A DNA stretch of 64,000 bases from Emticicia sp. C21 (GTDB lineage: Bacteria; Bacteroidota; Bacteroidia; Cytophagales; Spirosomataceae): contig NZ_QVMT01000004.1 in the NCBI RefSeq assembly GCF_003418935.1, positions 248,282 through 312,281 of the forward strand. The letters run 5' to 3'. How positions within the stretch are numbered: position 1 is the first letter of the stretch; the number at the start of each line of letters is the position of its first letter. This document shows, in pieces, positions 34,983-49,804 of the stretch. The notes below the pieces were generated by a model, which ran no database searches, was not told where the DNA came from, and was given only the letters and a program-made list of their open reading frames with translations. The translations under genes and the position numbers were made by a program.

Positions 34983-35012
34983 GAGTTGAATAGTATTTTT
35001 TAGAGATGAATT

Positions 35013-35028
35013 GGTATGCTTGCATACC
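35013..35028. promoter_or_regulatory. Candidate operator, palindrome GGTATGC-TT-GCATACC
   Basis: Perfect 7-bp arms around TT. The core TATGCTTGCATA is identical to two sites before the DUF4442-fadN-thiolase operon. It begins about 9 bases after the thiolase -7 box, so it covers the transcription start, a place where a repressor would block initiation. Confidence 0.65.
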
Positions 35029-35036
35029 TCCTTTGA

Positions 35037-35067
35037 CAAAACTAGTAAATACTTTCGTTTGATGCAA
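35037..35067 (-). promoter_or_regulatory. Promoter of the thiolase gene
   Basis: On the minus strand TTG (35067-35065) is followed after 20 bases by TAGTTTTG (35044-35037), a good Bacteroidota promoter. Its -33 part overlaps the divergent MFS promoter. Confidence 0.65.
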
Positions 35068-35088
35068 GTAGAGAAAATACTACCTTTG
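35058..35088 (+). promoter_or_regulatory. Promoter of the MFS transporter gene
   Basis: TTTG at 35058-35061 and TACCTTTG at 35081-35088 are 19 bases apart, an exact match to the consensus. It is back to back with the thiolase promoter. Confidence 0.75.
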
Positions 35089-35119
35089 TCAGAGTCCTAT
35101 TATCTTCTTTTATCCTCAC

Positions 35120-36307
35120 ATGGTTTCCTTATTTCGTAATGCTTTCGGTGGACTTTCCCGGCAAGTGTGGTTATTGGCAATTGTGATGTTCGTCAACCGG
35201 AGTGGTACGATGGTCATTGCCTTTCTGACGGTTTATCTGACTCAAAAACTGCATTTCAGTGTGCAAGAAGCAGGTATAGTTATGACTATGTTTGGTGTTG
35301 GTTCTATTTTTGGAACCTGGATGGGCGGAAAGCTGACTGATAAAATAGGTTATTACCCCGTGCAATTCTGGAGCTTATTTCTCGGCGGAATCATGTTTAT
35401 CGTGATGGTACATACCCAGCATTTTTATCTCCTTTGTATTTATGCTTTTTTGTTAAGTACCTTTGGTGAAGCCTATCGCCCGGCCAACTCTGCTTCCATT
35501 GCCGATTTTAGTACGCCTGAAACCTTTACGCGCTCGGTTTCATTGATACGCTTAGCCATTAATTTAGGCTGGTCTATCGGTCCTGCTATTGGCGGTTTTC
35601 TGGCAGCAAGAGACTATGATTTACTTTTCTGGGCAGATGGTTTGACGAACATTGGTGCAGGAATATTCGTTTGGGCCTTTTTGAGAAGTACCCGAAAGAA
35701 AAAAGAAGCGGAAGCCACCGAAACAGTGATTGACAAAAAAGATTCAGCGCTAAGAGACCGTACCTACATGATATTTATCGTACTGGCTTCCTTATACGCT
35801 ATTGCTTTCTCACAACTATTTACGATTGGACCGCTTTTTTATAAACAAGCCTGTAATCTGACAGAAGTCCAGATTGGTTATTTGCTAGGGCTGAATGGCC
35901 TGATAGTAGCTCTATTTGAAATGATTTTTATCTATAAAATTGAGGGGAGATTTGAGCGCCTGGCACTAATAAGTTTCGGAGCATTTCTGGTAATACCCAA
36001 CTATATTATTTTCCTGCTCACGCACAATTATATCTGGCTGATTATCGGGATTATTTTTGCCACATTCTCTGAGATGTTTGCGATGCCTTTTATGAATGCA
36101 TTCAGTATAGAGCGGGCAAAGCCTCATAACAGAGGTCAATACTCAGCATTATATGCCATGAGTTGGTCTATTGCCCAGATTTCTGCGCCTTTGATAGGTA
36201 CACAAACGATAGCTTTGTTCGGATTTGATGCCCTGTGGTATATTCTGGGCTCTCTGGGGTTGGTGTCTACTTTAGGATTTGGAGCTTTACGCAAAAGGTT
36301 AGCGTAA
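35120..36307 (+). CDS. MFS transporter
   Basis: A 395-residue inner-membrane protein with about 12 hydrophobic helices in two halves. The loop between helices 2 and 3 has GTWMGGKLTDKIG, equivalent to the MFS signature G-x-x-x-D-R-x-G. The central loop (RSTRKKKEAEATETVIDKKDSALRD) is cytoplasmic. It resembles YdeE/MdtH-type efflux members, but the substrate cannot be read from sequence. It is divergent from the thiolase and shares a very short double promoter with it; joint regulation is possible. Confidence 0.85.
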   Translation: MVSLFRNAFGGLSRQVWLLAIVMFVNRSGTMVIAFLTVYLTQKLHFSVQEAGIVMTMFGVGSIFGTWMGGKLTDKIGYYPVQFWSLFLGGIMFIVMVHTQHFYLLCIYAFLLSTFGEAYRPANSASIADFSTPETFTRSVSLIRLAINLGWSIGPAIGGFLAARDYDLLFWADGLTNIGAGIFVWAFLRSTRKKKEAEATETVIDKKDSALRDRTYMIFIVLASLYAIAFSQLFTIGPLFYKQACNLTEVQIGYLLGLNGLIVALFEMIFIYKIEGRFERLALISFGAFLVIPNYIIFLLTHNYIWLIIGIIFATFSEMFAMPFMNAFSIERAKPHNRGQYSALYAMSWSIAQISAPLIGTQTIALFGFDALWYILGSLGLVSTLGFGALRKRLA

Positions 36308-36325
36308 AGCCCCGCCTCTTTAAGA

Positions 36326-37147
36326 CTAGTATAGTATAGGGTTTAGCTTTCCATCTGCAATACTTCCTACCGGCTTGCTATCAAGCCATGTCTGCCAGTC
36401 TGCCATACGATACTCATTGGTAGGTTCAATTACTTTAATATCTTTATCCATGTAAATCATAGTCATTACTTTACGAGGCTTTCCTGACAAATTAGCGCCC
36501 GCTCTGTGGTAAGTCCAACCCGCATGATAACTCACTTCGCCTAACGCAAAAGGCGTATCATTCATGCTGAATTGTTTCAAAGTTTCTGCCAGTAATGCTT
36601 CTGATTCGTCTGATATTTCCATATCCCGGCCAATTTCTACAGTCTGACTTTTTTCGGCAAATGCCAGAGGTCCCATCTCCATCGGCGTATCCTGCAAAGG
36701 TATCCATACCGTAATAGTATTTGGATTTGACAAGGGCCAGTAGAACTGGTCGGCATGCCAGGGCGTAATACCTCCAGTTGGTTCTTTGTAAAGGGCTTGG
36801 TCATGATAGAGTCTCACACCGGAGACTCCCATCAATTCCGTAGCAATTTGCGCCAGACGTTTTGAAAAAACAAACTCTTTCACCTCTTCGTTTTCCCGCC
36901 ACATATTCATGATTTGCAGGAAAGCCTTTTCGTAAGTCGTCCGCTCTTCCATCGGTTTTGTGAGCTTATTCAGTTTGAAAACCCAATCGGTAATGATTTC
37001 GCCGTAGTATGCTAATACTTCTGCTGAAAGAACATTTTTGAGTTTTACATAACCGTTTTCCCGATAAAATGCGATAGCTTCGTCTGACAATTGAAAAGGT
37101 TCGTTAAGTTGATGCAAAAGTATTGTTTTCTCTGAATGAGCAGTCAT
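36326..37147 (-). CDS. Phytanoyl-CoA dioxygenase (PhyH) family protein
   Basis: A 273-residue Fe(II)/2-oxoglutarate oxygenase of the PhyH family. The iron site is visible as H-x-D in PWHADQFYW, with the distal histidine in YHRAGANLSGKPRKVMTMIYM, where the arginine is placed to bind 2-oxoglutarate. Bacterial members hydroxylate small molecules or natural products; the substrate here is unknown. It is divergent from the AraC-type regulator, which probably controls it (inference from layout). Confidence 0.85.
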   Translation of the reverse strand: MTAHSEKTILLHQLNEPFQLSDEAIAFYRENGYVKLKNVLSAEVLAYYGEIITDWVFKLNKLTKPMEERTTYEKAFLQIMNMWRENEEVKEFVFSKRLAQIATELMGVSGVRLYHDQALYKEPTGGITPWHADQFYWPLSNPNTITVWIPLQDTPMEMGPLAFAEKSQTVEIGRDMEISDESEALLAETLKQFSMNDTPFALGEVSYHAGWTYHRAGANLSGKPRKVMTMIYMDKDIKVIEPTNEYRMADWQTWLDSKPVGSIADGKLNPILY

Positions 37148-37286
37148 TGCTTAATCATGTTATGGTTGAATAGAGTACCACAAATTTCGATAGAATTTTT
37201 CTAAGAAAAATCTTTATTATTTTCATTTTTATATAGTATTTTAACATAAATTTGTTCGCCTAAATAATTCTTATGTTAATTAATGT

Positions 37287-37303
37287 ATTACAATGATTGT
37301 AAT
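37287..37303. promoter_or_regulatory. Candidate operator before the AraC-type regulator
   Basis: ATTACAA and TTGTAAT flank TGA, a perfect 17-bp palindrome 22 bases before the regulator's ATG, in the divergent gap shared with the PhyH gene. A role in autoregulation is inferred. Confidence 0.4.
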
Positions 37304-37324
37304 ATCCTTGCTATTTTACCCTGA

Positions 37325-38170
37325 ATGAAAGCCCTGTTTGAAAAAATATTAGCCGATGAAGGTTCATCATTTCTGACCCGATATGTGGCTTTGCCTCAAT
37401 TTGATGCGCCGCTTCATTATCATCCTGAATATGAATTAACATTCATCGTTAAAGGACAAGGCAAAAGGTTTGTAGGAGACCATGTAGCCAATTTTGAAGC
37501 AGGTGATTTAGTTTTGTTAGGCTCAAACCTCCCCCATTTCTGGCGAAGCGATATAAATCCTAAAAAAGATGGAGAATTACATGAAGCCGTAGTTATTCAG
37601 TTTTCTACTGCTTTTGTCAATCATATATTAAATAACCTTCCGGAGTGTAAGTCTATTATTACGCTTTTGAATACAGCTAAATCAGGTATTCAATTTCCTC
37701 AAACATTAGCGCCATTTATCTGGAAAGTATTTGAAACCGAGGGTGTAACCAGGCTATTAGCCTTAATTAGCGCTTTAGAACAATTATCTATCTGCGAAGA
37801 CTACGAGCTTTTAGCAAGCGAGGGCTTTAGTATCAAGCCTGATGAGACTGAGAATGAGCGTATGCGAAAGATATTAGAGTTTACCTTAGAAAATTACAAA
37901 GAAGATATTTCACTTGACACTATTGCAGAAATTGCCAACCTGACTGTCCCTTCATTCTGTAGATATTTTAAATCACGTACCCGAAAAACCTATGTATATT
38001 TTCTGAACGAAATACGATTGAGTAATGCCCGCAAAATGCTAATGGACAATCAGTTAGATATAAGCCAGATTAGTATCGAATGTGGTTTTCAGAACCTATC
38101 GCATTTTCACAGGATTTTTAAGACCCAGACAGGTGTAACGCCTTTGGTTTATCGGAGGAGATTTGGATGA
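37325..38170 (+). CDS. AraC-family transcriptional regulator with N-terminal cupin
   Basis: A 281-residue regulator. Residues about 20-100 form a cupin sensor (PLHYHPEYELTFIVKGQGKRFVGDHVANFEAGDLVLLGSNLPHFW). Residues about 180-281 form the double helix-turn-helix (ISLDTIAEIANLTVPSFCRYFKSRTRKTYVYFLNEIRLSNARKML, then DISQISIECGFQNLSHFHRIFKTQTGVTPLVYRRRF). AraC members with cupins usually sense sugars or similar small molecules. It is divergent from PhyH; its stop abuts the stop of the TPR gene on the other strand with no spacer. Confidence 0.9.
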   Translation: MKALFEKILADEGSSFLTRYVALPQFDAPLHYHPEYELTFIVKGQGKRFVGDHVANFEAGDLVLLGSNLPHFWRSDINPKKDGELHEAVVIQFSTAFVNHILNNLPECKSIITLLNTAKSGIQFPQTLAPFIWKVFETEGVTRLLALISALEQLSICEDYELLASEGFSIKPDETENERMRKILEFTLENYKEDISLDTIAEIANLTVPSFCRYFKSRTRKTYVYFLNEIRLSNARKMLMDNQLDISQISIECGFQNLSHFHRIFKTQTGVTPLVYRRRFG

Positions 38171-38980
38171 TTATTTCTTGAATACCCCCTTAGGGTCTTC
38201 TTTCTTTTCTAACAATGCCAGCAGAATTTCAGGATTGGCATTTTGTGGGTCTAGCTCATAACCTTTATGGAAACTCTCCCATGCATCGTCAATCTGATTA
38301 TTGGTCAATCGTGCCAACGATAATTGCATATACGCATTGGCACATTCAGGAGATTTTCTTAGTGCACTGGCTAACAAATCAAATGTTTTATCCATGTGCT
38401 CGGTCTTTTTATCAACCATAAACCATTTCAGGTATACTGTTGATAAATCAACCATCAGGGTTACATTGTCTTCATCGTCTAGTTCAAGACCATGCTCCAT
38501 CAGATTGACAGCATCTTCATACTTCTCATTCTGATAGTTAATAACACCTAAACCCCAATAAACATCTACATTTTCATCATCGAGCAGATACGCCAGATTG
38601 AAACGGTAAGTAGCAGTATCTTTCTGGCCTTCACTTAAATATTCCCAAGCACGTATAGAGAAGAATTCACTTGCCTCTTTGCGGTTTTTAAAGTTCACAT
38701 CGCACACTTTCAGAAATTCGGCGTCAATAGCTTTCTGGCTGTCGGTTTTATCATATCCGCCAAACAGAGGCATCAGGTGGATATTTATTCCGGCAGGAGC
38801 GAAATGTTTTTTTGCGTTCTTTTTTTCAGTTTCGGGAATAAAAGAATTTGGCTTGGTAGTGTGTGTGGTGTTTGATGAAAAAACACTCACATTTGTACTT
38901 TGTGAACGAAAAACAGGTTGTTGCGCCAGTAACTCGACTGAAACTAGTACAGATACACACGAAAACAAAATCAATCTCAT
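38171..38980 (-). CDS. Secreted TPR protein
   Basis: A 269-residue protein with a signal peptide (MRLILFSCVSVLVSVELLAQQ). The second half has three or four tetratricopeptide repeats (DVYWGLGVINYQNEKYEDAVNLMEHGLELDDED, HMDKTFDLLASALRKSPECANAYMQLSLARL, DDAWESFHKGYELDPQNANPEI). The start was set to ATG 38980; a GTG codon directly before it is also possible. Partner proteins are unknown. Confidence 0.78.
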   Translation of the reverse strand: MRLILFSCVSVLVSVELLAQQPVFRSQSTNVSVFSSNTTHTTKPNSFIPETEKKNAKKHFAPAGINIHLMPLFGGYDKTDSQKAIDAEFLKVCDVNFKNRKEASEFFSIRAWEYLSEGQKDTATYRFNLAYLLDDENVDVYWGLGVINYQNEKYEDAVNLMEHGLELDDEDNVTLMVDLSTVYLKWFMVDKKTEHMDKTFDLLASALRKSPECANAYMQLSLARLTNNQIDDAWESFHKGYELDPQNANPEILLALLEKKEDPKGVFKK

Positions 38981-39146
38981 CACTTATCTTGACATGAACA
39001 TCGATTAAATAACGCAGGGTCTGGCAATATTATTAGAATTTTTGGAAATTTTAATAAATCTGCAAAACCTTTTGTTTTAAAGAGTCTCTGAAGAGCTTAT
39101 ATCTGGCTCATGTAAAGGGAAAGCAACTATAATAGTTGGAGAAGTG

Positions 39147-40457
39147 TTAAGCAACTACTTCACCATATAAGTCAAATTCGGTGGCATCAGTGATTCTGAC
39201 ATTGGCAAAATCTCCTCTGCGCACATATTGAGAAGCGGGCACTAATACTTCATTGTCTACTTCGGGAGAATCAAACTCAGTCCGGCCAATAAAGTATCCG
39301 CCTTCTTTTTTATCAAACAGTACTTTATATGTTTTACCTATTTTCTCCTGATTCATTTCCTGTGAAATTCCTTGCTGCAATTCCATAATCAAATCGTTGC
39401 GCTCCTGTTTTACTTCGGCTGGCACATCGTCAATCATTGAATAAGCATGTGTATTTTCTTCATGTGAATACTGGAAAACGCCTAAACGCTCGAATCTGGT
39501 GTCTTCTACAAAACGGTACATTTCTTCAAAATGCTCTTCTGTTTCGCCCGGGTGTCCGGTAATCAAAGTCGTACGCAAGGCAATATCAGGTACAGTATCA
39601 CGAATAGTTTTAATCAGGTCTTCCGTTTTCTCTCTGGTGATACCTCTGCGCATCATTTTCAACATTTCGGTTGAACCATGTTGCAAAGGCATATCGAGAT
39701 ACTTACAGATATTTGAACGATTCTTCATTACATCAAGAATTTCTAAAGGAAAACCTGATGGGTAGGCATATTGCAGACGAATCCACTCAATTCCTTCTAC
39801 ATCTGACAATTGGTCGAGTAAATTAGCTAATTCGCGTTTCTTATACAAGTCCAATCCATAATAAGTTAAATCCTGTGCTAACAGAATTAACTCTTTTGTG
39901 CCTTTTCTAGCGAGGTTTTTTGCTTCCAGCACCAATTGATCAATCGGTTTTGAAAGGTGTTTGCCTCTCATTAATGGAATAGCACAAAAACTACAAGGAC
40001 GATCACAACCTTCCGAAATTTTCATGTAGGCATAGTGCGCCGGAGTAGTTAACAAACGCTCCCCTACCAGTTCCTGCTTATAATCAGCTTTTAAGGTCTT
40101 TAATATACGTGGTAATTCGTTGGTGCCGAACCAGGCATCAACGGTCGGAATTTCAACTTCTAATTCGTCTTTGTAACGATGTGATAAACAGCCTGTTACA
40201 TATACTTTATCTACTACACCAGCGTCTTTAGCATCGGTATAGCGAAGAATGGTATCTATTGATTCCTGTTTGGCATTATCAATGAAACCACAGGTATTAA
40301 TGATAACTATATTAGCATCATCCTTTTTTGACTCATGTGTTACGTTATACCCATTCCCTTTCAACTGTGTGTAAAGCTCCTCAGAATCGACCAGATTTTT
40401 CGAACAGCCAAGCGTAACTATATTTACTTTATTTTTAACCGAACCTTTTGTTTTCAA
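39147..40457 (-). CDS. rimO: Ribosomal protein S12 methylthiotransferase
   Basis: Radical-SAM enzyme that adds a methylthio group to an aspartate of ribosomal protein S12. The 436-residue product has the N-terminal methylthiotransferase domain with three cluster cysteines (C18 in TLGCSKN, C56, C90), the radical-SAM cluster C151-x3-C155-x2-C158 (EGCDRPCSFCAIP) and a C-terminal TRAM domain (GKTYKVLFDKKEGGYFIGRTEFDSPEVDNEVLV). CSKN after the first strand favours RimO over MiaB. The start codon is TTG at 40457-40455, giving MKTKGSVKNKVNIVTLGC as in relatives. Confidence 0.95.
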   Translation of the reverse strand: MKTKGSVKNKVNIVTLGCSKNLVDSEELYTQLKGNGYNVTHESKKDDANIVIINTCGFIDNAKQESIDTILRYTDAKDAGVVDKVYVTGCLSHRYKDELEVEIPTVDAWFGTNELPRILKTLKADYKQELVGERLLTTPAHYAYMKISEGCDRPCSFCAIPLMRGKHLSKPIDQLVLEAKNLARKGTKELILLAQDLTYYGLDLYKKRELANLLDQLSDVEGIEWIRLQYAYPSGFPLEILDVMKNRSNICKYLDMPLQHGSTEMLKMMRRGITREKTEDLIKTIRDTVPDIALRTTLITGHPGETEEHFEEMYRFVEDTRFERLGVFQYSHEENTHAYSMIDDVPAEVKQERNDLIMELQQGISQEMNQEKIGKTYKVLFDKKEGGYFIGRTEFDSPEVDNEVLVPASQYVRRGDFANVRITDATEFDLYGEVVA

Positions 40458-40609
40458 CTTTTTATTAATTGGTATATGATAGGCATAGAATAGTTAAACG
40501 ACTATTCAGCCTACAAAGTTCGGAAAAGAATGGGATATTAAAAAACTTCGGGAGATTAACAGGCTTAATTACAAGTATTTATAAATAAAGCCACATTTAT
40601 AGAATACAA

Positions 40610-40700
40610 AATTTTGCCACGATGTACACAATAAAACACAATGTTACACTATAAAAAAATTGTGTCACATCGTGCATTTAGTGTACATTGTGGCAAAATT
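40610..40700. repeat. Large imperfect inverted repeat between rimO and the DeoR-type gene
   Basis: Outer arms AATTTTGCCACGATGTACAC (40610-40629) and GTGTACATTGTGGCAAAATT (40681-40700) match at 19 of 20 positions. Inside, CACGATGT, ACACAAT and their complements recur, so several folds compete. It lies after the DeoR gene and may double as its terminator. Confidence 0.75.
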
Positions 40701-40715
40701 CATATACCACATTAT

Positions 40716-41486
40716 TCATAATAATTTTATCCCTGCCTGATGATAGCTTGCCAACTCTGGAGCATGATTATCTAATTCAGTAATCAGATAATCTATTTCA
40801 TTGGGTTTACAGATACCCCCTCTACAAACGGTATTGAGTTTTTCAGAGATAGATAATACCACTATTTTTTTAGAAGCCCTGATCATAGCCTTTTTTACCT
40901 GCACTACTTCAAGATCAGAGTCTGTCACCCCAAACTTGGCATCAATACCATTAGTACCTACCATGCATAAGTCGAATGACATCTCGCTTAGTTTCAGAAT
41001 AGAGTCTCCACCCACAGATATCTTGGCATCTTTTGATAATTTACCACCTATAAAAATTACCTCAATATTCGGGTGTTTCAATAGTTCCTCTGCTGTCATT
41101 AGACTTACCGTGCAAAAGGTAGCGTTCAGGTCTTTAGGCAATAGCTTGATTACCTCTCTCAAAGTAGTTCCTCCACTGGTTAGAATCAGCATCCCATCCT
41201 GAATAAGGCTGACTGCTTTTTTCGCAATAATCAATTTTTGCTCCCTGGCATAAACCACATCCTCGCTACTATTGCCCGAATAAGAAACCGATAAAGCCCC
41301 GCCGTGCACCTTAACCAATTTACCGCTTTCTGCCAGTTCGTTCAGGTCTCGTCTGATGGTGTCTTCTGAAACATTGAGCTGGCTGCAAAGGTCTGACGAC
41401 AGAACTTTATTATGTAAATTAAGTTCTTTAATAATGAAATCCTGACGTTCTTTTTTTAATAGCAGAGGCGTTGCGACTTTGTGCAT
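40716..41486 (-). CDS. DeoR-family transcriptional regulator
   Basis: A 256-residue sugar-type repressor. Residues about 15-70 are the DeoR helix-turn-helix (LNLHNKVLSSDLCSQLNVSEDTIRRDLNELAESGKLVKVHGGAL). The rest is the DeoRC sensor with the conserved TSGGTTLREVI, VIFIGGKLSKDAKISVGG and CMVGTNGIDAKFGVTDSD. Members usually respond to a phosphorylated sugar. It is divergent from susC, and a 13-bp repeat occurs on both sides of the gap, so it probably controls the SusC/SusD pair. Confidence 0.9.
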   Translation of the reverse strand: MHKVATPLLLKKERQDFIIKELNLHNKVLSSDLCSQLNVSEDTIRRDLNELAESGKLVKVHGGALSVSYSGNSSEDVVYAREQKLIIAKKAVSLIQDGMLILTSGGTTLREVIKLLPKDLNATFCTVSLMTAEELLKHPNIEVIFIGGKLSKDAKISVGGDSILKLSEMSFDLCMVGTNGIDAKFGVTDSDLEVVQVKKAMIRASKKIVVLSISEKLNTVCRGGICKPNEIDYLITELDNHAPELASYHQAGIKLL

Positions 41487-41494
41487 TATTGATT

Positions 41495-41507
41495 TGCGGT
41501 TTTATGC
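41495..41507 (+). promoter_or_regulatory. Candidate DeoR operator, repeat 1
   Basis: TGCGGTTTTATGC, just upstream of the DeoR start codon. It recurs identically 139 bp away before susC. DeoR proteins often bind widely spaced repeats and loop the DNA. Confidence 0.5.
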
Positions 41508-41633
41508 AATTTTATATAAGCTAAATTATATAATTTTTCTCAAAGGTAAAGTAAATCGAATAAATATTTCAAATAAGTATTTTACAATCAATTTTTTAGT
41601 AGTAAATATGCAAATCAATCTGCTATTCAGAAA

Positions 41634-41646
41634 TGCGGTTTTATGC
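41634..41646 (+). promoter_or_regulatory. Candidate DeoR operator, repeat 2
   Basis: TGCGGTTTTATGC, 46 bases before the susC start, in the same orientation as repeat 1. I see no clear TAnnTTTG box in the gap. Confidence 0.5.
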
Positions 41647-41692
41647 GTTTTTCAAACAGCTATTTACTTAATCATATTAAACTCTTATTCTT

Positions 41693-44600
41693 ATGATGAA
41701 AAATTACCAGGTAAAATTAAGGACTTTTACTTATGTAGCTGTGATGCTGCTATGCTCGCTGAGCGTATGGGCACAAAGAACAGCTTACGTAATTAAAGGT
41801 AAAGTTTCAGATGCTTCAGGAGGTGTGCCCGGAGCAACTGTTAAAATTGACGGAACAGCCTTTGGAACGATGACCGACTTAGAAGGGTCATACACATTGA
41901 ATGTCAATCTTAACCCGGGAAGATACAAAATTTCGGTGAGCTCGGTAGGATATGCTACGAAAGTACAAGAAGTAAATCTCGATAATCAGACAGTAATTAC
42001 CTTAGATGCAACCCTGACAGATGATGTAATGAACCTTGATGAGGTGGTGGTAACGGGTTCTACTATCCGTACGTCCCGTCGTGAGTTAGGAAATGCCATC
42101 AGTGCGGTGAATGCCGACCAATTGAAAGAGACAGGATCATCAAACCTGGTAAGTGCCTTACAAGGTAAAGTACCCGGTGCACAAATTACCCAGAATTCAG
42201 GAGACCCTGCCGGTGGAATTACCGTTCGTTTGCGTGGGGTAAAATCAATTCAGGGCAGTTCAGACCCTTTATATGTAATTGACGGGGTTATTGTGAGTAA
42301 CTCATCTGCCAACGTTTCGCAAACAGCTTTGGGTAATCAGGTAGGTGCGGCAACCATCGGTACCAACCGTTTGGCTGATATCAATCCGTCAGATATTGAA
42401 AGCATCAATGTGATTAATGGTGCGGCAGCTGCAGCGCAATATGGTTCGCGGGCAGCGAATGGAGTGGTTTTGATTACCACCAAACGTGGTAAAACAGGTA
42501 CTCCCCGCGTTACTTTTACAACCAGTGTTAATGCTAATGAGCTACGCAAAAAGGTATTTATCTCTACGTATGGCAAGCAGTTTGGTTTTGCAGGACTTCG
42601 TTTGCATACGATTGGCGTTGTTTCACCCGCCCAGATTGCAGCTAATCCGGGAACAACTGTTGTAAATATTCAACGTGACGGAACCAATAACAATCTGGCT
42701 AGTAACCTCGTTGATGTAAAACGCTACGATTATCAGGACCAGATATTCCAGACAGGTCTGGGAACAGATAATAATGTATCCATCAGTGGTGGCAATGATA
42801 GAACCCAATATTTTGCTTCGTTGTCGTACATGAAAAATGAGGGTATCATTAAAGGTACAGATTTCAACCGTTATGGGGTAAGAGCCAGAGTTGACCAACG
42901 TCTGGCCAACTGGGCAAAAATGTCGGTAGGTCTAAGTTATACCAATAGTTTTTCAAATGAAAAAGCCAATGGTAACGTATTCTACAGCCCTATCAACTCG
43001 GTTAATATCACCAATAATATTTACGATATTACCGTACGCGATGCAGCAGGAAATTTACAAGCAGTTGAGCCAACCCGTGTAAATCCATTGACTACTATTG
43101 AAGCCATGAAGTTTACGCAAGCTGTTAATCGTACAGTAAATGACTTCCAGTTAAACCTAACGCCTTTTAAAGGTTTTGCTATTGACTGGATTGTTGGGGT
43201 TGATGCTTATGCAGCTTTAGGTAAAAACTATATTCCGGCTTACCCTTATCAGGCAGTTGCAGGTCTTCCTGCTGAGCGCTATCCGAATGGTTATGCAGCT
43301 AATGCCAACAATAACTCTTTGCTTTTCAATACTGACTTAAACATTTCATATCAGCGAGAATTAAGCAAAGATTTCACCATGAACCTGATTGCAGGGGGTA
43401 ACTACCAATCGAGCAAAGTAGAATTTGCCAGGGCAAGTGGTGAAAACCTTGCTCCTTTCATTGAAACGGTAAGTGGAGCGGCAAGTACAACCGTAACAGC
43501 AGGTTTTGGTGTAGACCAATACAATCTAAGTGGATTTTTCGGACAGGCTACTTTTGGGTATAAAAACCTGGCTTTCATAACAGGAGCTATCCGTCAGGAT
43601 CGTTCGTCTAAATTCTCTCCAAGCGAAACCAAACAATTATATCCTAAGTTAAGCGGTAGCTTCGTACCATCTGATCTGGATTTCTGGAAAAACAGTAAAA
43701 TTAACAATATCATAAGTGGTTTAAAACTACGTGCTTCGTGGGGAGAGGCCGGAAACCTGACAGGTATTGGCTCTTACGACCGTTTCTGGCAATTCCTGCC
43801 TGTACCGCTTTTAGGAAGAAACACGATTGTTCCGAGTTCAACTTTAGCTAACCCAAGTGTGCGTCCTGAACGTATGACCGAGACAGAAGGTGGTGCAGAC
43901 CTTTCGTTCTGGAAAAACAAAATCAACTTAGGTGTAACAATTTACAAACAAACTATCTCAGACCTTGTGGTAAACCGTGTATTAGCAGCTACAACAGGTG
44001 GAACAAGTATCGTTAATAACGTGGGTACCATGGAGAACAAAGGACTTGAAATCGCTTTGAATGTAACACCTGTTAAAACAAAAGATTTCAACTGGGATTT
44101 CACCATTATTTACAACCGCAATCGCAACAAAGTTATCAGCTTGGGTAGTCCAACTGTAGCTATTGCCAATGCAGCCGGTGCTCCTGTTTTCTTGATTCAG
44201 GGACAACCAGCCTCTGTATTCTATGAGTTCCCTTACGCCAGAAACACAGATGGAACTTTATTGCTTACCTCACAAGGTTTGCCACAACGTGAAAGAGGTA
44301 CACAAGCCAATAATGCTGTTGTATATGAACCAAAACGCGATGCTGCAGGACAACCTTCGTACGAGGCAGGAACTACTTTTGTAAGAACAATTATTGGTAA
44401 CCCTAATCCTGATTGGACAGGCTCATTCGTTAACTCACTTGGCTGGAAAAACTTCAGTTTCAGATTCTTGTTAGATGCCGTGCAAGGGGTTAGCGTATTC
44501 AATGCTGATAAACGTACAAGAAACAACGTAGGAATAGGTGATATTGCAGAAAAAGAAATGACCGGAGAATTACCTCGTGGGTATGTATTCTCATTGGCGA

Positions 44601-44863
44601 ACATCAGCGAATATCGTGTGGATAATGGTTCATTTGTGAAGCTACGTGAATTGTCGTTTGGCTACCAATTGCCTAATATCATTAAGGGTATCAGCAATAT
44701 CAATCTTACTTTGGTTGGTCGTAACCTGATGTCGTGGGATAAATACAATGGCTATGACCCTGAAACCAATGCTGGTGGTAACAACGATTTATTGCGTAAC
44801 GTAGACTTCGGTAACGTACCGATTCCGAAAACTTATCAGGTTCAGTTAACAGCTACATTCTGA
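41693..44863 (+). CDS. SusC/RagA-family TonB-linked outer-membrane transporter
   Basis: A 1056-residue outer-membrane protein that takes up large nutrients with a SusD-type lid. A signal peptide ends near AQ at residue 27-28; a carboxypeptidase-regulatory-like domain follows (about 30-120, VIKGKVSDASGGVPGATVKIDGTA), then the SusC signature around DEVVVTG, the plug (SALQGKVPGAQI, GGITVRLRGVKSI, PLYVIDGV) and a 22-strand-type barrel to the C-terminal aromatic residue. No glycan specificity can be read from it. It is followed 95 bp later by the SusD partner and controlled, probably, by the divergent DeoR regulator. Confidence 0.95.
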   Translation: MMKNYQVKLRTFTYVAVMLLCSLSVWAQRTAYVIKGKVSDASGGVPGATVKIDGTAFGTMTDLEGSYTLNVNLNPGRYKISVSSVGYATKVQEVNLDNQTVITLDATLTDDVMNLDEVVVTGSTIRTSRRELGNAISAVNADQLKETGSSNLVSALQGKVPGAQITQNSGDPAGGITVRLRGVKSIQGSSDPLYVIDGVIVSNSSANVSQTALGNQVGAATIGTNRLADINPSDIESINVINGAAAAAQYGSRAANGVVLITTKRGKTGTPRVTFTTSVNANELRKKVFISTYGKQFGFAGLRLHTIGVVSPAQIAANPGTTVVNIQRDGTNNNLASNLVDVKRYDYQDQIFQTGLGTDNNVSISGGNDRTQYFASLSYMKNEGIIKGTDFNRYGVRARVDQRLANWAKMSVGLSYTNSFSNEKANGNVFYSPINSVNITNNIYDITVRDAAGNLQAVEPTRVNPLTTIEAMKFTQAVNRTVNDFQLNLTPFKGFAIDWIVGVDAYAALGKNYIPAYPYQAVAGLPAERYPNGYAANANNNSLLFNTDLNISYQRELSKDFTMNLIAGGNYQSSKVEFARASGENLAPFIETVSGAASTTVTAGFGVDQYNLSGFFGQATFGYKNLAFITGAIRQDRSSKFSPSETKQLYPKLSGSFVPSDLDFWKNSKINNIISGLKLRASWGEAGNLTGIGSYDRFWQFLPVPLLGRNTIVPSSTLANPSVRPERMTETEGGADLSFWKNKINLGVTIYKQTISDLVVNRVLAATTGGTSIVNNVGTMENKGLEIALNVTPVKTKDFNWDFTIIYNRNRNKVISLGSPTVAIANAAGAPVFLIQGQPASVFYEFPYARNTDGTLLLTSQGLPQRERGTQANNAVVYEPKRDAAGQPSYEAGTTFVRTIIGNPNPDWTGSFVNSLGWKNFSFRFLLDAVQGVSVFNADKRTRNNVGIGDIAEKEMTGELPRGYVFSLANISEYRVDNGSFVKLRELSFGYQLPNIIKGISNINLTLVGRNLMSWDKYNGYDPETNAGGNNDLLRNVDFGNVPIPKTYQVQLTATF

Positions 44864-44958
44864 TAATCAGTTCATTTGGTTCTTTTCAAAAAACAGATTT
44901 CATGCATATAATTTACCCCGAAGCATGAGAAGCATTTGACAGGGGATTTAAAAAAAAG

Positions 44959-46251
44959 ATGAAAAAAACATTCATATATTCAGTTCTGACGGCTACTACT
45001 CTGTTGGCAACTTCTTGTAATCAGGAGTTCCTAAACCCGAGTGCTGCCAGTGAACAACAGGTAGTCAACGACGTGAACGGTCTGATTGCCTTAGCCAATG
45101 GTTTACAATATCGCTTAACTATCGGGCGTGCAAGCCCGGGTTATGCACTACCGACAGCCATTGGTTTAACAACCAAAGAACTAAAAGTACTCAACGCAGG
45201 TAATGGCGATGAGGCATTCCTTGAAACTGGAGCAGGCAGCGTACAAAACCCTAACTCGGTTATCTCGAACCTTTGGAATCAAAGCCACTTAGTGAAAGCA
45301 AATGCTGACAATATCTTAAATAATGTCAATATTGTGCAGGATGCAGGTACCAAGAGCGGTCTGATAGCTTATGCCTCTATTTTCAAAGCATTGGCTTTGG
45401 GAAATCTGGCAACAGGTTGGGAACAAGCGCCATTGGTAGTAGGTACGAACGCCGCCTTTGTTCCGCGTGCAGATGTATTAAAAGCTGCCATAACAACACT
45501 TGAAAGTGCTGCTACAGCCTTGGCTACTCCAGTTTCTGCTAGCTTCACCAGCCGTATTGTGCCGGGCATTGACTTGGCCAACACCATTCAGGCGCTTATC
45601 GCTCGCTATAGTATTATGCTTGGTGATTATGACAAAGCTTTAGCAGCTGCTGCAAAGGTAGATTTAACCAAAAAATCGGCCTTTAATTTTGATGATACTT
45701 CCCGTAACCCGATGTTCGACGTTGTATTCAGCAACCGTAACGTAACTGAACCTACTAATACTGACTTCGGCCTTCCCGCTAGCTTGAAACCAGAAGCGGC
45801 TGATAAAAGAATTCCTTTCTTTTTCCAGACTTCAAGCGCCACTAACAACTTAGGCAGAGCAAGTTTTTATACAGCCAATAACTCTGCCCTTCCGGTGTAT
45901 TTACCGGGAGAAATTATCCTGATTAAAGCAGAAGCCCAGGCTCGCAAAGGTAACCTTGATGCCGCAGTAACAGAATTAAATAATGTTTTAACCAAAACTA
46001 CTGATGCCTGGGGGATTGGCGCAGGCTTACCTGCTTATGCCGGAGAAAAAACTGCAACGGCTATTCTGACAGAGATTTACAGACAGCGCAGTATTGAATT
46101 ATTCCTGCAAGGCTTCCGCTTAGAAGATAGCCGTCGCTTTGGTCGCCCAGGCCCAGGTACCGCAGGTGCAGAACGCACCCGTAACTGGTATCCTTACCCA
46201 ACGACCGAGAAAGATAACAATACCAATACGCCAAATGACCCGGCAATCTGA
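44959..46251 (+). CDS. SusD/RagB-family outer-membrane nutrient-binding lipoprotein
   Basis: A 430-residue surface lipoprotein, lid of the SusC transporter. The signal peptide ends at a lipobox-like TSC (MKKTFIYSVLTATTLLATSCNQEFL). SusD features include the N-terminal NQEFLNPSAAS segment, the TPR-like helices (LANTIQALIARYSIMLGDYDKALAAAAKV) and the C-terminal ILTEIYRQRSIELFLQGFRLEDSRRFGRP motif. At 430 residues it is shorter than many SusD proteins. No enzyme gene follows; transcription ends at a strong hairpin. Confidence 0.93.
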   Translation: MKKTFIYSVLTATTLLATSCNQEFLNPSAASEQQVVNDVNGLIALANGLQYRLTIGRASPGYALPTAIGLTTKELKVLNAGNGDEAFLETGAGSVQNPNSVISNLWNQSHLVKANADNILNNVNIVQDAGTKSGLIAYASIFKALALGNLATGWEQAPLVVGTNAAFVPRADVLKAAITTLESAATALATPVSASFTSRIVPGIDLANTIQALIARYSIMLGDYDKALAAAAKVDLTKKSAFNFDDTSRNPMFDVVFSNRNVTEPTNTDFGLPASLKPEAADKRIPFFFQTSSATNNLGRASFYTANNSALPVYLPGEIILIKAEAQARKGNLDAAVTELNNVLTKTTDAWGIGAGLPAYAGEKTATAILTEIYRQRSIELFLQGFRLEDSRRFGRPGPGTAGAERTRNWYPYPTTEKDNNTNTPNDPAI

Positions 46252-46259
46252 TATTTTAC

Positions 46260-46288
46260 AAAATAGCCTATTAACCATAGGCTATTTT
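46260..46288 (+). terminator. Terminator of the susCD unit
   Basis: AAAATAGCCTAT (46260-46271) and ATAGGCTATTTT (46277-46288) pair perfectly around TAACC, ending in T residues, 8 bases after the SusD stop. Confidence 0.88.
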
Positions 46289-46328
46289 GTATCGCTAAAT
46301 TAGTCGCAAACACTTCATCTTCAAACAA

Positions 46329-46354
46329 AAAAGGGTCTCTATTGAGACCCTTTT
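46329..46354 (-). terminator. Terminator of asd (bidirectional shape)
   Basis: AAAAGGGTCTC (46329-46339) and GAGACCCTTTT (46344-46354) pair around TATT, with A and T runs on the outer ends, 22 bases after the asd stop. Confidence 0.85.
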
Positions 46355-46375
46355 ACTTTTCTTATATGCTTGCTA

Positions 46376-47374
46376 TTAAGCCAGTAAGTTTTTACCTAAT
46401 AGATATTCTGCAATTTGTACAGCGTTGGTAGCAGCACCTTTGCGAAGGTTATCTGCTACAATCCAAAGATTCAAAGTTTTTGCCTGAGACTCATCACGAC
46501 GGATACGTCCTACAAAAACTTCGTCTTTACCATGCGCATTGATTGGCATCGGGTATACAAAATTCTTAGGGTCATCCTGAACAATTACACCCTCTGTTTC
46601 GCTCAACAATTTTGAAACTTCTGCCAAATCGAAATCATTTTCAAACTCTATATTTACCGCCTCTGAGTGACCACCGATAGTTGGGATACGAACAGTAGTA
46701 GCTGTAACAGCTATACTATCATCACCCATGATTTTCTTGGTTTCGTTGGTCATTTTCATTTCCTCTTTGGTATAACCATTGTCAAGGAAAACATCGATAT
46801 GAGGCAATACATTCAAATCTATTTTGTGTGGGTATACTTTCTTAGTTGCATCGTCATCGCCACCTCTTTCTGCAAAAAGCTGGTCAACTGCTGCCTTACC
46901 TGTACCTGTAACCGATTGGTAAGTTGAAACAACCACACGTTTAATCTTGTATTTATCGTGCAATGGTTTCATTACAACTACCATCTGAATAGTTGAGCAA
47001 TTCGGGTTAGCAATAATTTTGTCTTCTGCTGTTAAGGTATCAGCATTTACTTCCGGCACTACCAGTTTTTTGGTAGGATCCATTCTCCAGGCTGATGAAT
47101 TATCAATAACCGGGATGCCTGCTTCTGCAAATTTCGGAGCCAACGCCAACGAAGTACTTCCACCAGCCGAAAATATTGCCACCGCAGGCTTCATCTTGAT
47201 TGCGTCTTCGTAGCCTACTACCGTAAACTGCTTACCCTTAAATTCAACCTGCTTACCAATAGATTTTTCAGAAGCAACAGGAATAATTTCGGTAACGGGG
47301 AAATTGCGTTCCGCCAAGACTTTCAAGATTTCAGTGCCTACCAGTCCGGTAGCACCTACAACTGCGATTTTCAT
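46376..47374 (-). CDS. asd: Aspartate-semialdehyde dehydrogenase
   Basis: NADPH-dependent enzyme making aspartate semialdehyde, the branch point to lysine/diaminopimelate, threonine and methionine. The 332-residue product has the Rossmann motif VVGATGLVGTEILKVL, the active-site cysteine C126 in ANPNCSTIQM, and the catalytic-histidine region RIPTIGGHSEAVNIEF. Length and motifs fit the bacterial enzyme. A hairpin lies in the 5' leader near a likely -7 box. Confidence 0.96.
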   Translation of the reverse strand: MKIAVVGATGLVGTEILKVLAERNFPVTEIIPVASEKSIGKQVEFKGKQFTVVGYEDAIKMKPAVAIFSAGGSTSLALAPKFAEAGIPVIDNSSAWRMDPTKKLVVPEVNADTLTAEDKIIANPNCSTIQMVVVMKPLHDKYKIKRVVVSTYQSVTGTGKAAVDQLFAERGGDDDATKKVYPHKIDLNVLPHIDVFLDNGYTKEEMKMTNETKKIMGDDSIAVTATTVRIPTIGGHSEAVNIEFENDFDLAEVSKLLSETEGVIVQDDPKNFVYPMPINAHGKDEVFVGRIRRDESQAKTLNLWIVADNLRKGAATNAVQIAEYLLGKNLLA

Positions 47375-47431
47375 GATTGAAACCCCACGGTTTACATGGG
47401 AAAATTTTAGTTAGACATATATTTACAAGAA

Positions 47432-47453
47432 AGCCCCAATTTGCAAAGGGGCT
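47432..47453 (-). promoter_or_regulatory. Hairpin in the asd leader (or terminator of the upstream gene)
   Basis: AGCCCC (47432-47437) and GGGGCT (47448-47453) flank AATTTGCAAA, and on the minus strand TTTCTTG follows. It lies about 7 bases after the -7 box at 47461, so it would form the very 5' end of the asd mRNA; alternatively it ends the cyclo-ligase transcript. Confidence 0.45.
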
Positions 47454-47460
47454 GGGAGTG

Positions 47461-47468
47461 CAAAAATA
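47461..47468 (-). promoter_or_regulatory. Probable -7 box of asd
   Basis: The minus strand reads TATTTTTG (TAnnTTTG), about 87 bases before the asd ATG. No convincing -33 element is seen. Confidence 0.4.
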
Positions 47469-47557
47469 ATAGAAATTTTTGTTTGTTTTTCTTGGAATAA
47501 TACAAAATATTTTAAAAGTCTGTTTAAAAATTATAATCCGACCTGCAGAGGCAATAT

Positions 47558-48139
47558 TTAAACAGATTCGAAATTCCAGATTCCGTTAGGTGTAACGCAA
47601 TAATTAAGCTTTACATCTTCACCATTTATATCTTCAATAACATCAACAGGTTCAAAAAAAGAAACACCAATTTTCACTACATCCGGTCGGCATTCGGCTA
47701 AAAAGCGGTCATAATACCCCTTTCCATACCCTACTCGATACCCTTGTTTATCGAAAGCCAATAGAGGGAGTATTACTAAATCAACTTCTTTAGGATCTAC
47801 TTTCAGTGGCGAACCATTGAGAGGCTCGGGTACTCCGAATTTATTTTCCAATAAGATAGTATCATCTTTAAGCGGATAATGGGTCATGCTTCCATCATCA
47901 TGGCTTTTAGGTATCACAATATCAGCCTTAAAATCTTTTCTTAAAGTATCAATTACCAGATGCGTATCAACCTCGTTCTTTCTTCTGATAGGCAAAAATG
48001 TATGAATCACAGCATAGTTATGCATAGGAAAACTCTTGAAAATCCAATCATGGATTTTCTTCGAATACCCTTTAATATCAGTATTCGGCAGGTCGTTCCT
48101 TTTTTGAAGATATTCTTTCCTTAATGCTGCTTTCATCAT
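47558..48139 (-). CDS. 5-formyltetrahydrofolate cyclo-ligase
   Basis: ATP-dependent enzyme returning 5-formyl-THF to 5,10-methenyl-THF. The 193-residue product begins with the basic helix KAALRKEYLQKRNDL, has VIHTFLPIRRKNEVDTHLVID and the C-terminal signature LVILPLLAFDKQGYRVGYGKGYYDRFL that holds the phosphate-binding loop. The gene lies 3 bp after the JmjC-like gene, so both are probably on one transcript. The next gene on this strand, asd, has its own likely promoter. Confidence 0.93.
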   Translation of the reverse strand: MMKAALRKEYLQKRNDLPNTDIKGYSKKIHDWIFKSFPMHNYAVIHTFLPIRRKNEVDTHLVIDTLRKDFKADIVIPKSHDDGSMTHYPLKDDTILLENKFGVPEPLNGSPLKVDPKEVDLVILPLLAFDKQGYRVGYGKGYYDRFLAECRPDVVKIGVSFFEPVDVIEDINGEDVKLNYCVTPNGIWNFESV

Positions 48140-48142
48140 AAA

Positions 48143-48994
48143 TCATGCTTCCTGTAACGATTGATTTGCTTTTTCCTGGGCTTTATTTTCTTTCCATTCT
48201 TTCCACTGCGGGCCTAACATCTTGGCCATTCCTTTATCTACAAAAGTATGACGCACCAGATTCCAGCCACCTCTTACAGTTGTAAAGATAGAGTCATTCG
48301 CTCTTAGTGCCAGACTAAAACCACCATCTACATACTTGATATAGTGCCACCATAACGATGGAATGAAAGCTGTTTCGCCGTGACCAAAAGTAGCTTCATA
48401 ACCTACCGATTTTTCGAAAGCAGGGAATTTCTTGAAGTCTGGTTTTAATGGGTGTACGTGACTTTGTACCGTAAATGGGTGATGGTACAGATTAACGCTT
48501 TCTTCCTGTGGAAAAAGGACGATTTTCTTACGAGTCTGGAATTGCGTCAGGAACACGTGCGAGCAATCCATATCATAATGAAGGTTTACTTCAGCATCCT
48601 GACCACCAAAAAACATAAATTTATAGCTTTTCAAAAAGCCATCCATAATCGTCGGGAAACGAATGTCGTTAGCCAGTTCGGGTACTTTCTTAAAGATATC
48701 AAATAAGAAAATACGTAATTCGGTAGGCCCTTGCTCTATTAGACTCAGATAATCGCCAAAAGGCATGGTTTTAGCAGCCTTATAGTAATTTTTGGCATCA
48801 TGAACTTTATTATCAAATAATGGTACTTCAATGTGCCCGTAATTTGTTCGAAGCCAATCAAATGTCCATTTATCCAAAGCAGGCCAATCTTTCACAAGGT
48901 CAGTAAAAATAACTGGTTTCTTGGGCTTTAGATAATTCTCGATGAACTCTTCTCGACTTAAGTTGCTGCGTCTTTCGATAGGTATCAGTTTCAT
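48143..48994 (-). CDS. Cupin-like JmjC-domain oxygenase
   Basis: A 283-residue protein of the cupin_8/JmjC type. The Fe(II) site appears as H-x-D in NLHYDMDCSHVF, with the distal histidine in ALWWHY-like FIPSLWWHYIKYV; KPVIFTDLVKDWPALDKWTFDWLR is the usual N-terminal segment. Relatives hydroxylate protein side chains or small molecules with 2-oxoglutarate; the target here is unknown. It is separated from the cyclo-ligase by 3 bp. Confidence 0.85.
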   Translation of the reverse strand: MKLIPIERRSNLSREEFIENYLKPKKPVIFTDLVKDWPALDKWTFDWLRTNYGHIEVPLFDNKVHDAKNYYKAAKTMPFGDYLSLIEQGPTELRIFLFDIFKKVPELANDIRFPTIMDGFLKSYKFMFFGGQDAEVNLHYDMDCSHVFLTQFQTRKKIVLFPQEESVNLYHHPFTVQSHVHPLKPDFKKFPAFEKSVGYEATFGHGETAFIPSLWWHYIKYVDGGFSLALRANDSIFTTVRGGWNLVRHTFVDKGMAKMLGPQWKEWKENKAQEKANQSLQEA

Positions 48995-49189
48995 AAAAAC
49001 AATAGTGATTTTTAATTTTTATCGAATAATATCAAATCAATAAAAAATAATAATAATGTAGCGAATTATATCTGAGTGTTATTAATAAAAACCAATGCCA
49101 CAAAAAAATGGTTTCATAAAAACACTTGCCAATCAAAATTTTTATTGTCTGATTTATCCGGGATTTATTACAAATAAATTTTATATTAG

Positions 49190-49201
49190 TATGCTTGCAT
49201 A
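49190..49201. promoter_or_regulatory. Candidate operator 1 of the beta-oxidation operon
   Basis: TATGC-TT-GCATA. It overlaps the -33 TTG of the promoter, so a bound protein would block polymerase. Identical to the core at 49234 and 35015. Confidence 0.65.
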
Positions 49202-49224
49202 ATATTTTCTTTACTGTATCTTTG
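49195..49224 (+). promoter_or_regulatory. Promoter of the DUF4442-fadN-thiolase operon
   Basis: TTG at 49195-49197 and TATCTTTG at 49217-49224 are 19 bases apart. Transcription should start near 49231, leaving a leader of about 85 bases that begins with operator 2. Confidence 0.7.
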
Positions 49225-49233
49225 TTGTGAAAT

Positions 49234-49245
49234 TATGCTTGCATA
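49234..49245. promoter_or_regulatory. Candidate operator 2 of the beta-oxidation operon
   Basis: TATGC-TT-GCATA, 9 bases after the -7 box, the same position as the single site at the 35-kb thiolase promoter. Centre-to-centre distance to operator 1 is 44 bp, about four helical turns. Confidence 0.65.
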
Positions 49246-49315: not shown

Positions 49316-49804
49316 ATGGAATATAACAACGCCCTTAACCGAAACCTTGCAAAGGTTCAGAAAATGCCAGCTTTTCTGCAAAATTGGTTACGCGATTATT
49401 CCATTGGTAAATTCGTTAAATTCGTTGGCACAGCAGGTATTCATTTCGAAAAAATGACTTGCCACGAGGTCGTAATTATACTTCCCAATAAAACCAGAGT
49501 CCAGAATCATATCGGACAAATTCATGCCGCCGCCACTACCCTTTTAGCTGAAACCGCTACGGGTATGGTTGTGGGTATGAATATCCCCGACAACAAGCTC
49601 CCTTTGATGAAAAATCTCTCAGTGAAATTCATCAAACGAAGCCAAGGGCAACAAAAAGCGGTTGCTACGCTAACGGAGCAGCAAATTAGTCAGATTCGGG
49701 AAACTGATAAAGGCGATGTAAACGTAGCCGTAAAAATCACCGACGAAACGGAAGAAGAAGTTGTTGTGACAGAGATGAATTGGGCGTGGATTTTGAAGAA
49801 GTAG
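49316..49804 (+). CDS. DUF4442 hotdog-fold protein (probable acyl-CoA thioesterase)
   Basis: A 162-residue protein of the DUF4442/YiiD-C type. The hotdog core is visible as VQNHIGQIHAAATTLLAETATGMVVGMNIPDNKLPLMKNLSVKFIKRSQG, where N-H-x-G-x-x-H stands at the place of thioesterase active-site residues. It probably releases CoA from acyl-CoA intermediates. It leads the beta-oxidation operon, behind the regulated promoter; 192 bp with an inverted repeat separate it from fadN. Confidence 0.78.
   Translation: MEYNNALNRNLAKVQKMPAFLQNWLRDYSIGKFVKFVGTAGIHFEKMTCHEVVIILPNKTRVQNHIGQIHAAATTLLAETATGMVVGMNIPDNKLPLMKNLSVKFIKRSQGQQKAVATLTEQQISQIRETDKGDVNVAVKITDETEEEVVVTEMNWAWILKK

What the first reader, a model, noticed from the sequence alone, without database searches (positions are those of the whole stretch)
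35013..49245. One palindromic operator shared by two separate fatty-acid degradation loci
TATGC-TT-GCATA occurs at 35015-35026 (extended to 7-bp arms), 49190-49201 and 49234-49245. All three lie in promoters of beta-oxidation genes: the lone thiolase and the DUF4442-fadN-thiolase operon. At both promoters one copy begins 9-10 bases after the -7 box, and at 49 kb a second overlaps the -33 box, 44 bp away centre to centre. Equal position relative to two independently recognised promoters is hard to explain by chance. The regulator is not in the window; TetR- or MarR-type acyl-CoA sensors are the expected kind (inference).
Basis: partly seen in the sequence, partly recalled or inferred. Interest (0 to 1): 0.72.

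Follow-up and report, generated by a model that had tools for sequence, protein, structure and literature searches.

The report
MarR fatty-acid regulon with promoter-embedded operator
The short DNA palindrome seen before two fat-burning gene clusters is very probably the binding site of a MarR-type repressor that switches the scattered fatty-acid breakdown genes of this bacterium and of many relatives, and in part of these promoters the site also seems to carry one of the promoter's own signals.

Summary
In detail: TATGCTTGCATA occurs exactly at 35015, 49190 and 49234, with the stated geometry. The genome (an Emticicia relative) has 13 copies, the reversed control 0; with a free centre 20 against 3. 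Of those 20, 17 lie at 5' ends of genes, in 15 promoter regions: 8 lead beta-oxidation or ETF genes, 1 the regulator, 2 Fe-S proteins, 1 a fatty-acid hydroxylase domain protein, 3 are unexplained. The regulator, outside the window, is most probably a 155-aa MarR protein: one copy in 61 of 61 family genomes, a perfect site before it in 64 of 80 loci (control 0), followed by a fadN-like gene in 27 of 27 loci read outside the family. Best reading: a repressor relieved by acyl-CoA, its targets scattered from a marR-fadN operon. New detail: where the -7 box starts 26-29 nt after the site start, the centre is TT in 43 of 44 cases, so the operator would supply the -33 TTG. Binding, repression and ligand are untested. 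A new member of a known kind.

The parts
35015..35026 (.). operator TATGC-TT-GCATA of the lone thiolase (7-bp arms 35013-35028), downstream of the -7 box
   Evidence: perfect site in 15 of 16 thiolase loci
35037..35044 (-). -7 promoter box of the thiolase, TAGTTTTG
   Evidence: box start to operator start is 18 nt in all 10 same-genus loci
35065..35067 (-). candidate -33 element TTG of the thiolase promoter, 20 nt before the -7 box
   Evidence: sequence, read by eye
33783..34982 (-). thiolase (acetyl-CoA acyltransferase)
   Evidence: Pfam Thiolase_N 1.1e-52, Thiolase_C 4.7e-45
49190..49201 (+). upstream operator; its central TTG (49195-49197) sits at the -33 position, 19 nt before the -7 box
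49217..49224 (+). -7 promoter box of the DUF4442-fadN-thiolase operon, TATCTTTG
49234..49245 (+). downstream operator, 9 nt after the -7 box
   Evidence: pair present in 8 of 10 DUF4442 loci
49316..49804 (+). DUF4442 protein, possibly a hotdog acyl-CoA thioesterase
   Evidence: PF14539 1.6e-26; TIGR00369 hotdog thioesterase 4.3e-6, below its cut-off
49997..52405 (+). FadN-type 3-hydroxyacyl-CoA dehydrogenase / enoyl-CoA hydratase
52482..53660 (+). second thiolase of the operon

Best explanation
TATGCNNGCATA is the operator of a MarR-family homodimer, encoded outside the window at G000:C30:370025-370489, which represses its own gene and about a dozen scattered promoters of beta-oxidation, ETF and associated electron-transfer genes. 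It works by occlusion. One operator class lies just after the -7 box (start-site region). The other covers the -33 region, where the operator's central TTG can double as the -33 element. Several targets have tandem copies on both sides of the -7 box. A fatty acyl-CoA, or another product of fatty-acid uptake, would release the repressor. In the loci read outside this family the regulator gene is followed by fadN, as an autoregulated operon; in Spirosomataceae that arrangement is often broken up and the pieces carry their own operators. Shown by sequence: motif, enrichment, gene content, conservation, regulator linkage, geometry. Inferred: binding, repression, ligand, use of the embedded TTG by RNA polymerase, direction of evolution.
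For: Own genome 13 exact copies against 0, free centre 20 against 3. Targets. Family: 57 of 61 genomes have the exact 12-mer, 377 copies against 21 controls. MarR ortholog in 61 of 61 family genomes, 147 of 192 order genomes, 54 of 296 phylum genomes. Perfect site before 38 of 46 distinct orthologs, 64 of 80 loci of genome contigs and 26 of 29 phylum loci (best 30 of 54 fetched, one of them seen before); reversed control 0. fadN-like gene directly after marR in 27 of 27 loci outside the family (by N-terminal sequence); among the 80 loci fadN next in 37, the 600-aa acyl-CoA dehydrogenase (ACAD) next in 13. ACAD promoters: site in 30 of 30 fetched loci, pair in 28 of 30. Motif and regulator go together: outside the family, 122 order genomes with the MarR gene hold 209 exact copies against 30 controls; in the phylum sample, free centre, 54 genomes with it 346 against 128, 242 without it 445 against 374. 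Centre: with the -7 box at +26..29 it is TT in 8 of 8 DUF4442 and 14 of 14 ACAD cases and 21 of 22 marR cases. MarR model, mean pLDDT 90.8. 78 of 80 orthologs lack any cysteine, against thiol sensing.
Against: No binding, expression or ligand data. 16 of 80 MarR promoters lack a perfect site: best fit 9 of 10 in seven, 8 of 10 in five (three of these are terminator-like hairpins), 7 of 10 in four. Three of 15 promoter regions of the genome have no evident link to fatty acids; one of them leads a response-regulator-like gene, so MarR is not the only regulator gene with a site. Order genomes without the MarR gene: 26 outside one family hold 10 copies against 4 controls, and 19 of that family (mostly 0.7-1.9 Mb) hold 13 against 0; of 12 of these 13 read, 7 lie in coding sequence and 5 between genes without evident link. 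Own-class genomes without it still show 69 against 39 with a free centre, 19 genomes. A canonical -7 box at +26..29 gave only 14 cases in 30 ACAD loci and 22 in 64 marR sites, and TT also occurs in 15 of the other 42 marR sites. Related genomes are not independent, so the Fisher p-values are only descriptive. In the f17 genome read (G169) the ACAD pair, read by eye, has its -7 box at about +23. [quoted passage not shown] johnsoniae.
Confidence: 0.86

Rival explanations
1. The palindrome is the operator of a different regulator (for example TetR type) that also controls the MarR gene.
For: Correlation alone cannot name the binder; TetR regulators (PsrA, FadP) do this job in Proteobacteria (passages of PMC5343134). 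Other regulator genes were not surveyed here.
Against: The MarR gene carries its own site in most relatives read, is followed by fadN in 27 of 27 loci read outside the family, and motif enrichment is stronger in genomes that hold the gene.
Confidence: 0.07
2. MarR protein and operator are as described, but the signal is not an acyl-CoA: an acyl-ACP, a free fatty acid, or an aromatic CoA thioester.
For: MarR ligands vary widely; FabT answers to acyl-ACP (recalled). In one related genome a site precedes an acyl carrier protein gene (L290).
Against: The targets are fatty-acid oxidation and ETF genes; the MarR protein CouR has been solved with an acyl-CoA (5cyv).
Confidence: 0.25
3. The site is an activator site, not a repressor operator.
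For: Some MarR proteins activate (recalled).
Against: Operators sit on the -33 region or directly after the -7 box, often both, where a bound protein should block polymerase.
Confidence: 0.06
4. The palindrome acts as RNA: a small CUUG-loop hairpin or terminator.
For: TATG-CTTG-CATA could fold; GGATGC-TT-GCATCC followed by a T run occurs before marR in several loci, and the 49234 copy is followed by a short T run.
Against: The centre varies (AT, GT, CT, AC, GC and others), the stem is only four weak pairs, and upstream copies lie before the expected transcript start.
Confidence: 0.01

Closest known systems
FabT (MarR family, fatty acid synthesis, streptococci and enterococci)
   Same: MarR fold, lipid metabolism, and the regulator gene leads the operon it controls (start of the abstract of PMC13046290 in the listing)
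   Different: FabT controls synthesis, not degradation; similarity is only general (NCBIfam FabT model 25.3 bits against a cut-off of 200; PDB 6jbx E 1.3e-5)
FadR (GntR), PsrA and FadP (TetR), fatty-acid degradation regulators of Proteobacteria
   Same: Same job: a regulator of scattered fatty-acid degradation genes (passages of PMC5343134)
   Different: Different protein families; their operators (recalled) differ from TATGCNNGCATA
CouR (MarR family, p-coumaroyl-CoA sensor)
   Same: MarR fold (5cyv E 6.6e-7 by Foldseek; 6c28 E 4.1e-9 by profile); a precedent for an acyl-CoA ligand
   Different: Aromatic ligand; 20% identity over the Foldseek alignment
AbfR and SarZ (MarR family, oxidation sensing)
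   Same: Among the nearest solved sequences (5hlh 7.6e-14, 3hrm 1.1e-12)
   Different: They sense through cysteine (recalled); 78 of 80 orthologs here have none

Membership tests
MarR family of winged-helix regulators | MarR domain | tested here: met
   PF01047 E 5e-12, 46 bits against a cut-off of 24.6
MarR family of winged-helix regulators | winged-helix fold with flanking dimer helices | tested here: met
   AlphaFold2 monomer of the Emticicia sp. BO119 ortholog, mean pLDDT 90.8; the best-ranked Foldseek matches are MarR-family structures such as MepR, PcaV and MarR. Dimer not modelled
MarR family of winged-helix regulators | palindromic operator near its own promoter | tested here: met
   64 of 80 loci, 38 of 46; binding itself not tested
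FabT | match to the curated FabT model above its cut-off | tested here: not met
   25.3 bits against 200
FadR / PsrA / FadP | GntR or TetR DNA-binding domain | tested here: not met
   at E up to 1e-4 only MarR, winged-helix and SarA/Rot models matched
OhrR / SarZ / AbfR redox sensors | conserved sensing cysteine | tested here: not met
   78 of 80 orthologs have no cysteine, 2 have one each at different positions
acyl-CoA-responsive repressor (functional class) | release from DNA by an acyl-CoA | not testable with these tools
   needs purified protein

The most novel reading that the evidence does not exclude
The operator is a dual-use element: in promoters where it starts 26-29 nt before the -7 box, its two central bases, free for the repressor, are fixed as TT so that CTTG serves as the -33 element. 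A widespread MarR regulator of fatty-acid oxidation thus keeps its operator inside the promoter core, and an ancestral autoregulated marR-fadN operon was broken into a regulon by carrying this combined promoter-operator to the pieces.
Probability: 0.48. Interest if true: 0.62.

Novelty: new member of a known kind. Interest (0 to 1): 0.52.

Why it matters
Nine paper searches (open-licence library only, listings seen, swamped by unrelated papers) showed no paper naming a regulator of fatty-acid degradation in Bacteroidota. If right, one protein and one 12-base word predict much of the fatty-acid regulon of many Cytophagales and of some other Bacteroidota genomes, suggest roles for regulon genes that lack one (a DUF4442 protein, two Fe-S proteins that may take electrons from ETF), and give a natural test of the weakly supported -33 element of Bacteroidota promoters.

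Tried and rejected
Degenerate matches: one-mismatch sites are not enriched, so no wider regulon was claimed from them. TATGCNNGCATA copies inside genes (L014, L015, L017) were set aside as background, equal in number to the 3 control matches. Small genomes with the 12-mer but no MarR gene were checked: of 12 of their 13 copies, 7 are in coding sequence, several in members of one repeated gene family, and 5 lie between genes with no evident link; taken as background, though 13 against 0 is not explained. An RNA hairpin role was considered and disfavoured on position and centre variation. A DNA-looping role for tandem copies was not claimed: spacings of 42-52 bp do not keep one helical phase. 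The AlphaFold monomer cannot show a ligand. The 445-aa protein behind the L031 site matched no Pfam or NCBIfam family. In one search loci were wrongly taken as reoriented, so its count (16 of 50) is void and replaced. One search parsed neighbours by short sequence marks, so its 'other' class (30 of 80) holds some fad genes, for example fadN second in line.
Full report
OBSERVATION. The thiolase gene is taken to start at the ATG at 34982; the longer TTG-started ORF would place the operator inside the gene.

GENOME. The window is G000:C28:248282-312281 of a 6.64-Mb genome. The closest named match in a search with the MarR alignment, led by the own protein, is Emticicia sp. BO119 (96%), so the organism is taken as an Emticicia relative in Spirosomataceae (inference). 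The exact 12-mer occurs 13 times against 0 for the reversed pattern, TATGCNNGCATA 20 times against 3, while one-mismatch copies are at background. I looked at all 20: three are inside coding sequence (L014, L015, L017) and 17 lie at 5' ends of genes (the etfBA site also overlaps the called start of an opposite ORF), in 15 promoter regions because two promoters hold two copies. Eight regions lead beta-oxidation or ETF genes: lone thiolase; DUF4442-fadN-thiolase; three acyl-CoA dehydrogenase (ACAD) genes, one behind an SCP2 gene; an enoyl-CoA hydratase; a fadJ-like gene behind a nucleotidyltransferase-like gene; etfBA. One leads the MarR gene, two lead Fe-S proteins (Fer4 domains; CCG domain), one a fatty-acid hydroxylase domain protein. 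Three have no clear link: a TonB receptor facing a DUF3089 gene, a response-regulator-like gene, and a 445-aa protein without any family match.

REGULATOR. The own-genome MarR gene (C30:370025-370489) has TATGCCTGCATA starting 56 nt before its ATG. The ortholog is single in 61 of 61 family genomes at E up to 1e-15 and present in 147 of 192 order genomes at E up to 1e-12. Among 46 distinct orthologs, 38 have a perfect site within 260 nt upstream. Of the other 8, two have one arm mismatch (L066, L068), one had its start miscalled by my script (L106; one search shows a perfect site near its real start), and five have 6 to 8 of 10. Among 80 loci of genome contigs, 64 have a perfect site within 300 nt, reversed control 0, with 11 other copies in 631 kb. 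In the phylum sample 54 of 296 genomes match the profile, all within the own class; of the 29 loci read, 26 have a perfect site and the 3 misses fit at 9 of 10 positions. In all 27 of these that lie outside the family the next gene on the same strand is fadN-like by its N-terminal sequence. In the 80 loci the next gene is fadN in 37, ACAD in 13 and something else in 30, of which some have fadN second. The four family genomes without the exact 12-mer (G009, G040, G056, G060) all keep the MarR gene; only G040 and G056 were looked at upstream, and both have TATGCATGCATA.

CO-OCCURRENCE. Outside the family, 122 order genomes with the MarR gene hold 209 exact copies against 30 controls; 26 without it, one family aside, 10 against 4; and 19 of that family, all without it, 13 against 0. 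With a free centre in 296 phylum genomes: 54 with the gene, 346 against 128; 242 without it, 445 against 374; the 19 own-class genomes without it, 69 against 39. So the enrichment follows the gene, with a smaller excess where I did not find it.

CONSERVATION. Lone thiolase: 16 of 26 genomes searched have a match; 15 of these 16 loci, own included, have a perfect site and the 16th (G006) a 9-of-10 site. DUF4442: 10 of 26 genomes have a match; 9 loci have a site, 8 the pair, none in the one locus outside the family. ACAD: 59 of 61 genomes have a match; the 30 loci fetched all have a site and 28 a pair. In three genomes of other families read (G121, G123, G169) sites again precede ACAD genes, an Fe-S protein gene or marR, and in G169 also a nitronate-monooxygenase-like and an acyl carrier protein gene, by eye; one G169 copy is inside a gene.

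PROMOTER-OPERATOR RELATION. Bacteroidota promoters are described as TTTG at -33 and TAnnTTTG at -7 (passages of PMC7366714, PMC2483708, PMC6847099), with -33 much less evident in F. johnsoniae. In 26 parsed ACAD pairs the upstream copy, read on the coding strand, has centre TT in 23 and AT in 3; the downstream copy is never TT. With a -7 box starting 26-29 nt after the site start the centre is TT in 14 of 14 ACAD and 8 of 8 DUF4442 cases and 21 of 22 marR cases; at +21..24 of the marR loci it is TT in 2 of 8. Copies that follow a -7 box (box start 13-25 nt before them) are mixed: TT 6 of 12 (thiolase), 7 of 9 (DUF4442), 1 of 13 (ACAD, and that one is an upstream copy). The TTG so placed is 18-21 nt before the -7 box. 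My reading: the arms belong to the repressor and the centre, at this spacing, to the promoter. Limits: a canonical box at +26..29 gave 14 cases in 30 ACAD loci and 22 in 64 marR sites; 12 of those 22 are Dyadobacter; so the p-values do not count independent events.

MECHANISM. Repression by occlusion is inferred from position; release by acyl-CoA from the target genes and from CouR as precedent. The model of the ortholog is an ordinary MarR monomer. Absence of cysteine in 78 of 80 orthologs speaks against an oxidation sensor.

EVIDENCE AGAINST AND GAPS. Sixteen of 80 marR promoters lack a perfect site. Genomes of one family of mostly small genomes carry 13 copies with no MarR gene. No fadD or fadL gene was seen directly behind the sites of this genome, although acyl-CoA-ligase-like genes stand before marR in some relatives, by eye. 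TetR and other regulator genes of the own genome were not scanned. Absence from print is limited to the open-licence library and the nine searches named above.

VERDICT. A real regulon with a well-supported MarR regulator: new as far as searched, but of a known kind; the dual-use centre is the most surprising part and needs a reporter test.

Noticed in passing
L200:3923-3952, L207:3922-3951, L197, L204, L214 (also L201, L205, L206, L209): TAGGATGC-TT-GCATCCTA followed by a T run, a terminator-like hairpin with a CTTG loop, stands shortly before marR in several loci and resembles the operator itself.
   Followed up: partly
L290:3046-3057: In one genome of another family (G169) a perfect site lies about 93 nt before an acyl carrier protein gene, which would tie the regulator to fatty acid synthesis.
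   Followed up: no
L022:7606-8934 and L024:8972-9766: Two separate Fe-S protein genes (Fer4 domains; CCG domain) behind sites look like halves of an HdrD-like protein and may be the quinone-side partner of ETF (inference).
   Followed up: partly
L275, L277, L278: In a 1.1-Mb genome the 12-mer recurs inside several copies of what looks like one coding family; probably unrelated to the regulon.
   Followed up: partly
window 34972-34983: A two-mismatch relative of the operator (TATGCTTCCATG) overlaps the thiolase start codon; likely chance.
   Followed up: no
window 35120-36307: An MFS transporter gene is divergent from the thiolase and could share the 35015 operator; the geometry fits the thiolase better.
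   Followed up: no
L031:9512-10934: TATGCATGCATA lies 73 nt before a 445-aa protein without any Pfam or NCBIfam match.
   Followed up: partly
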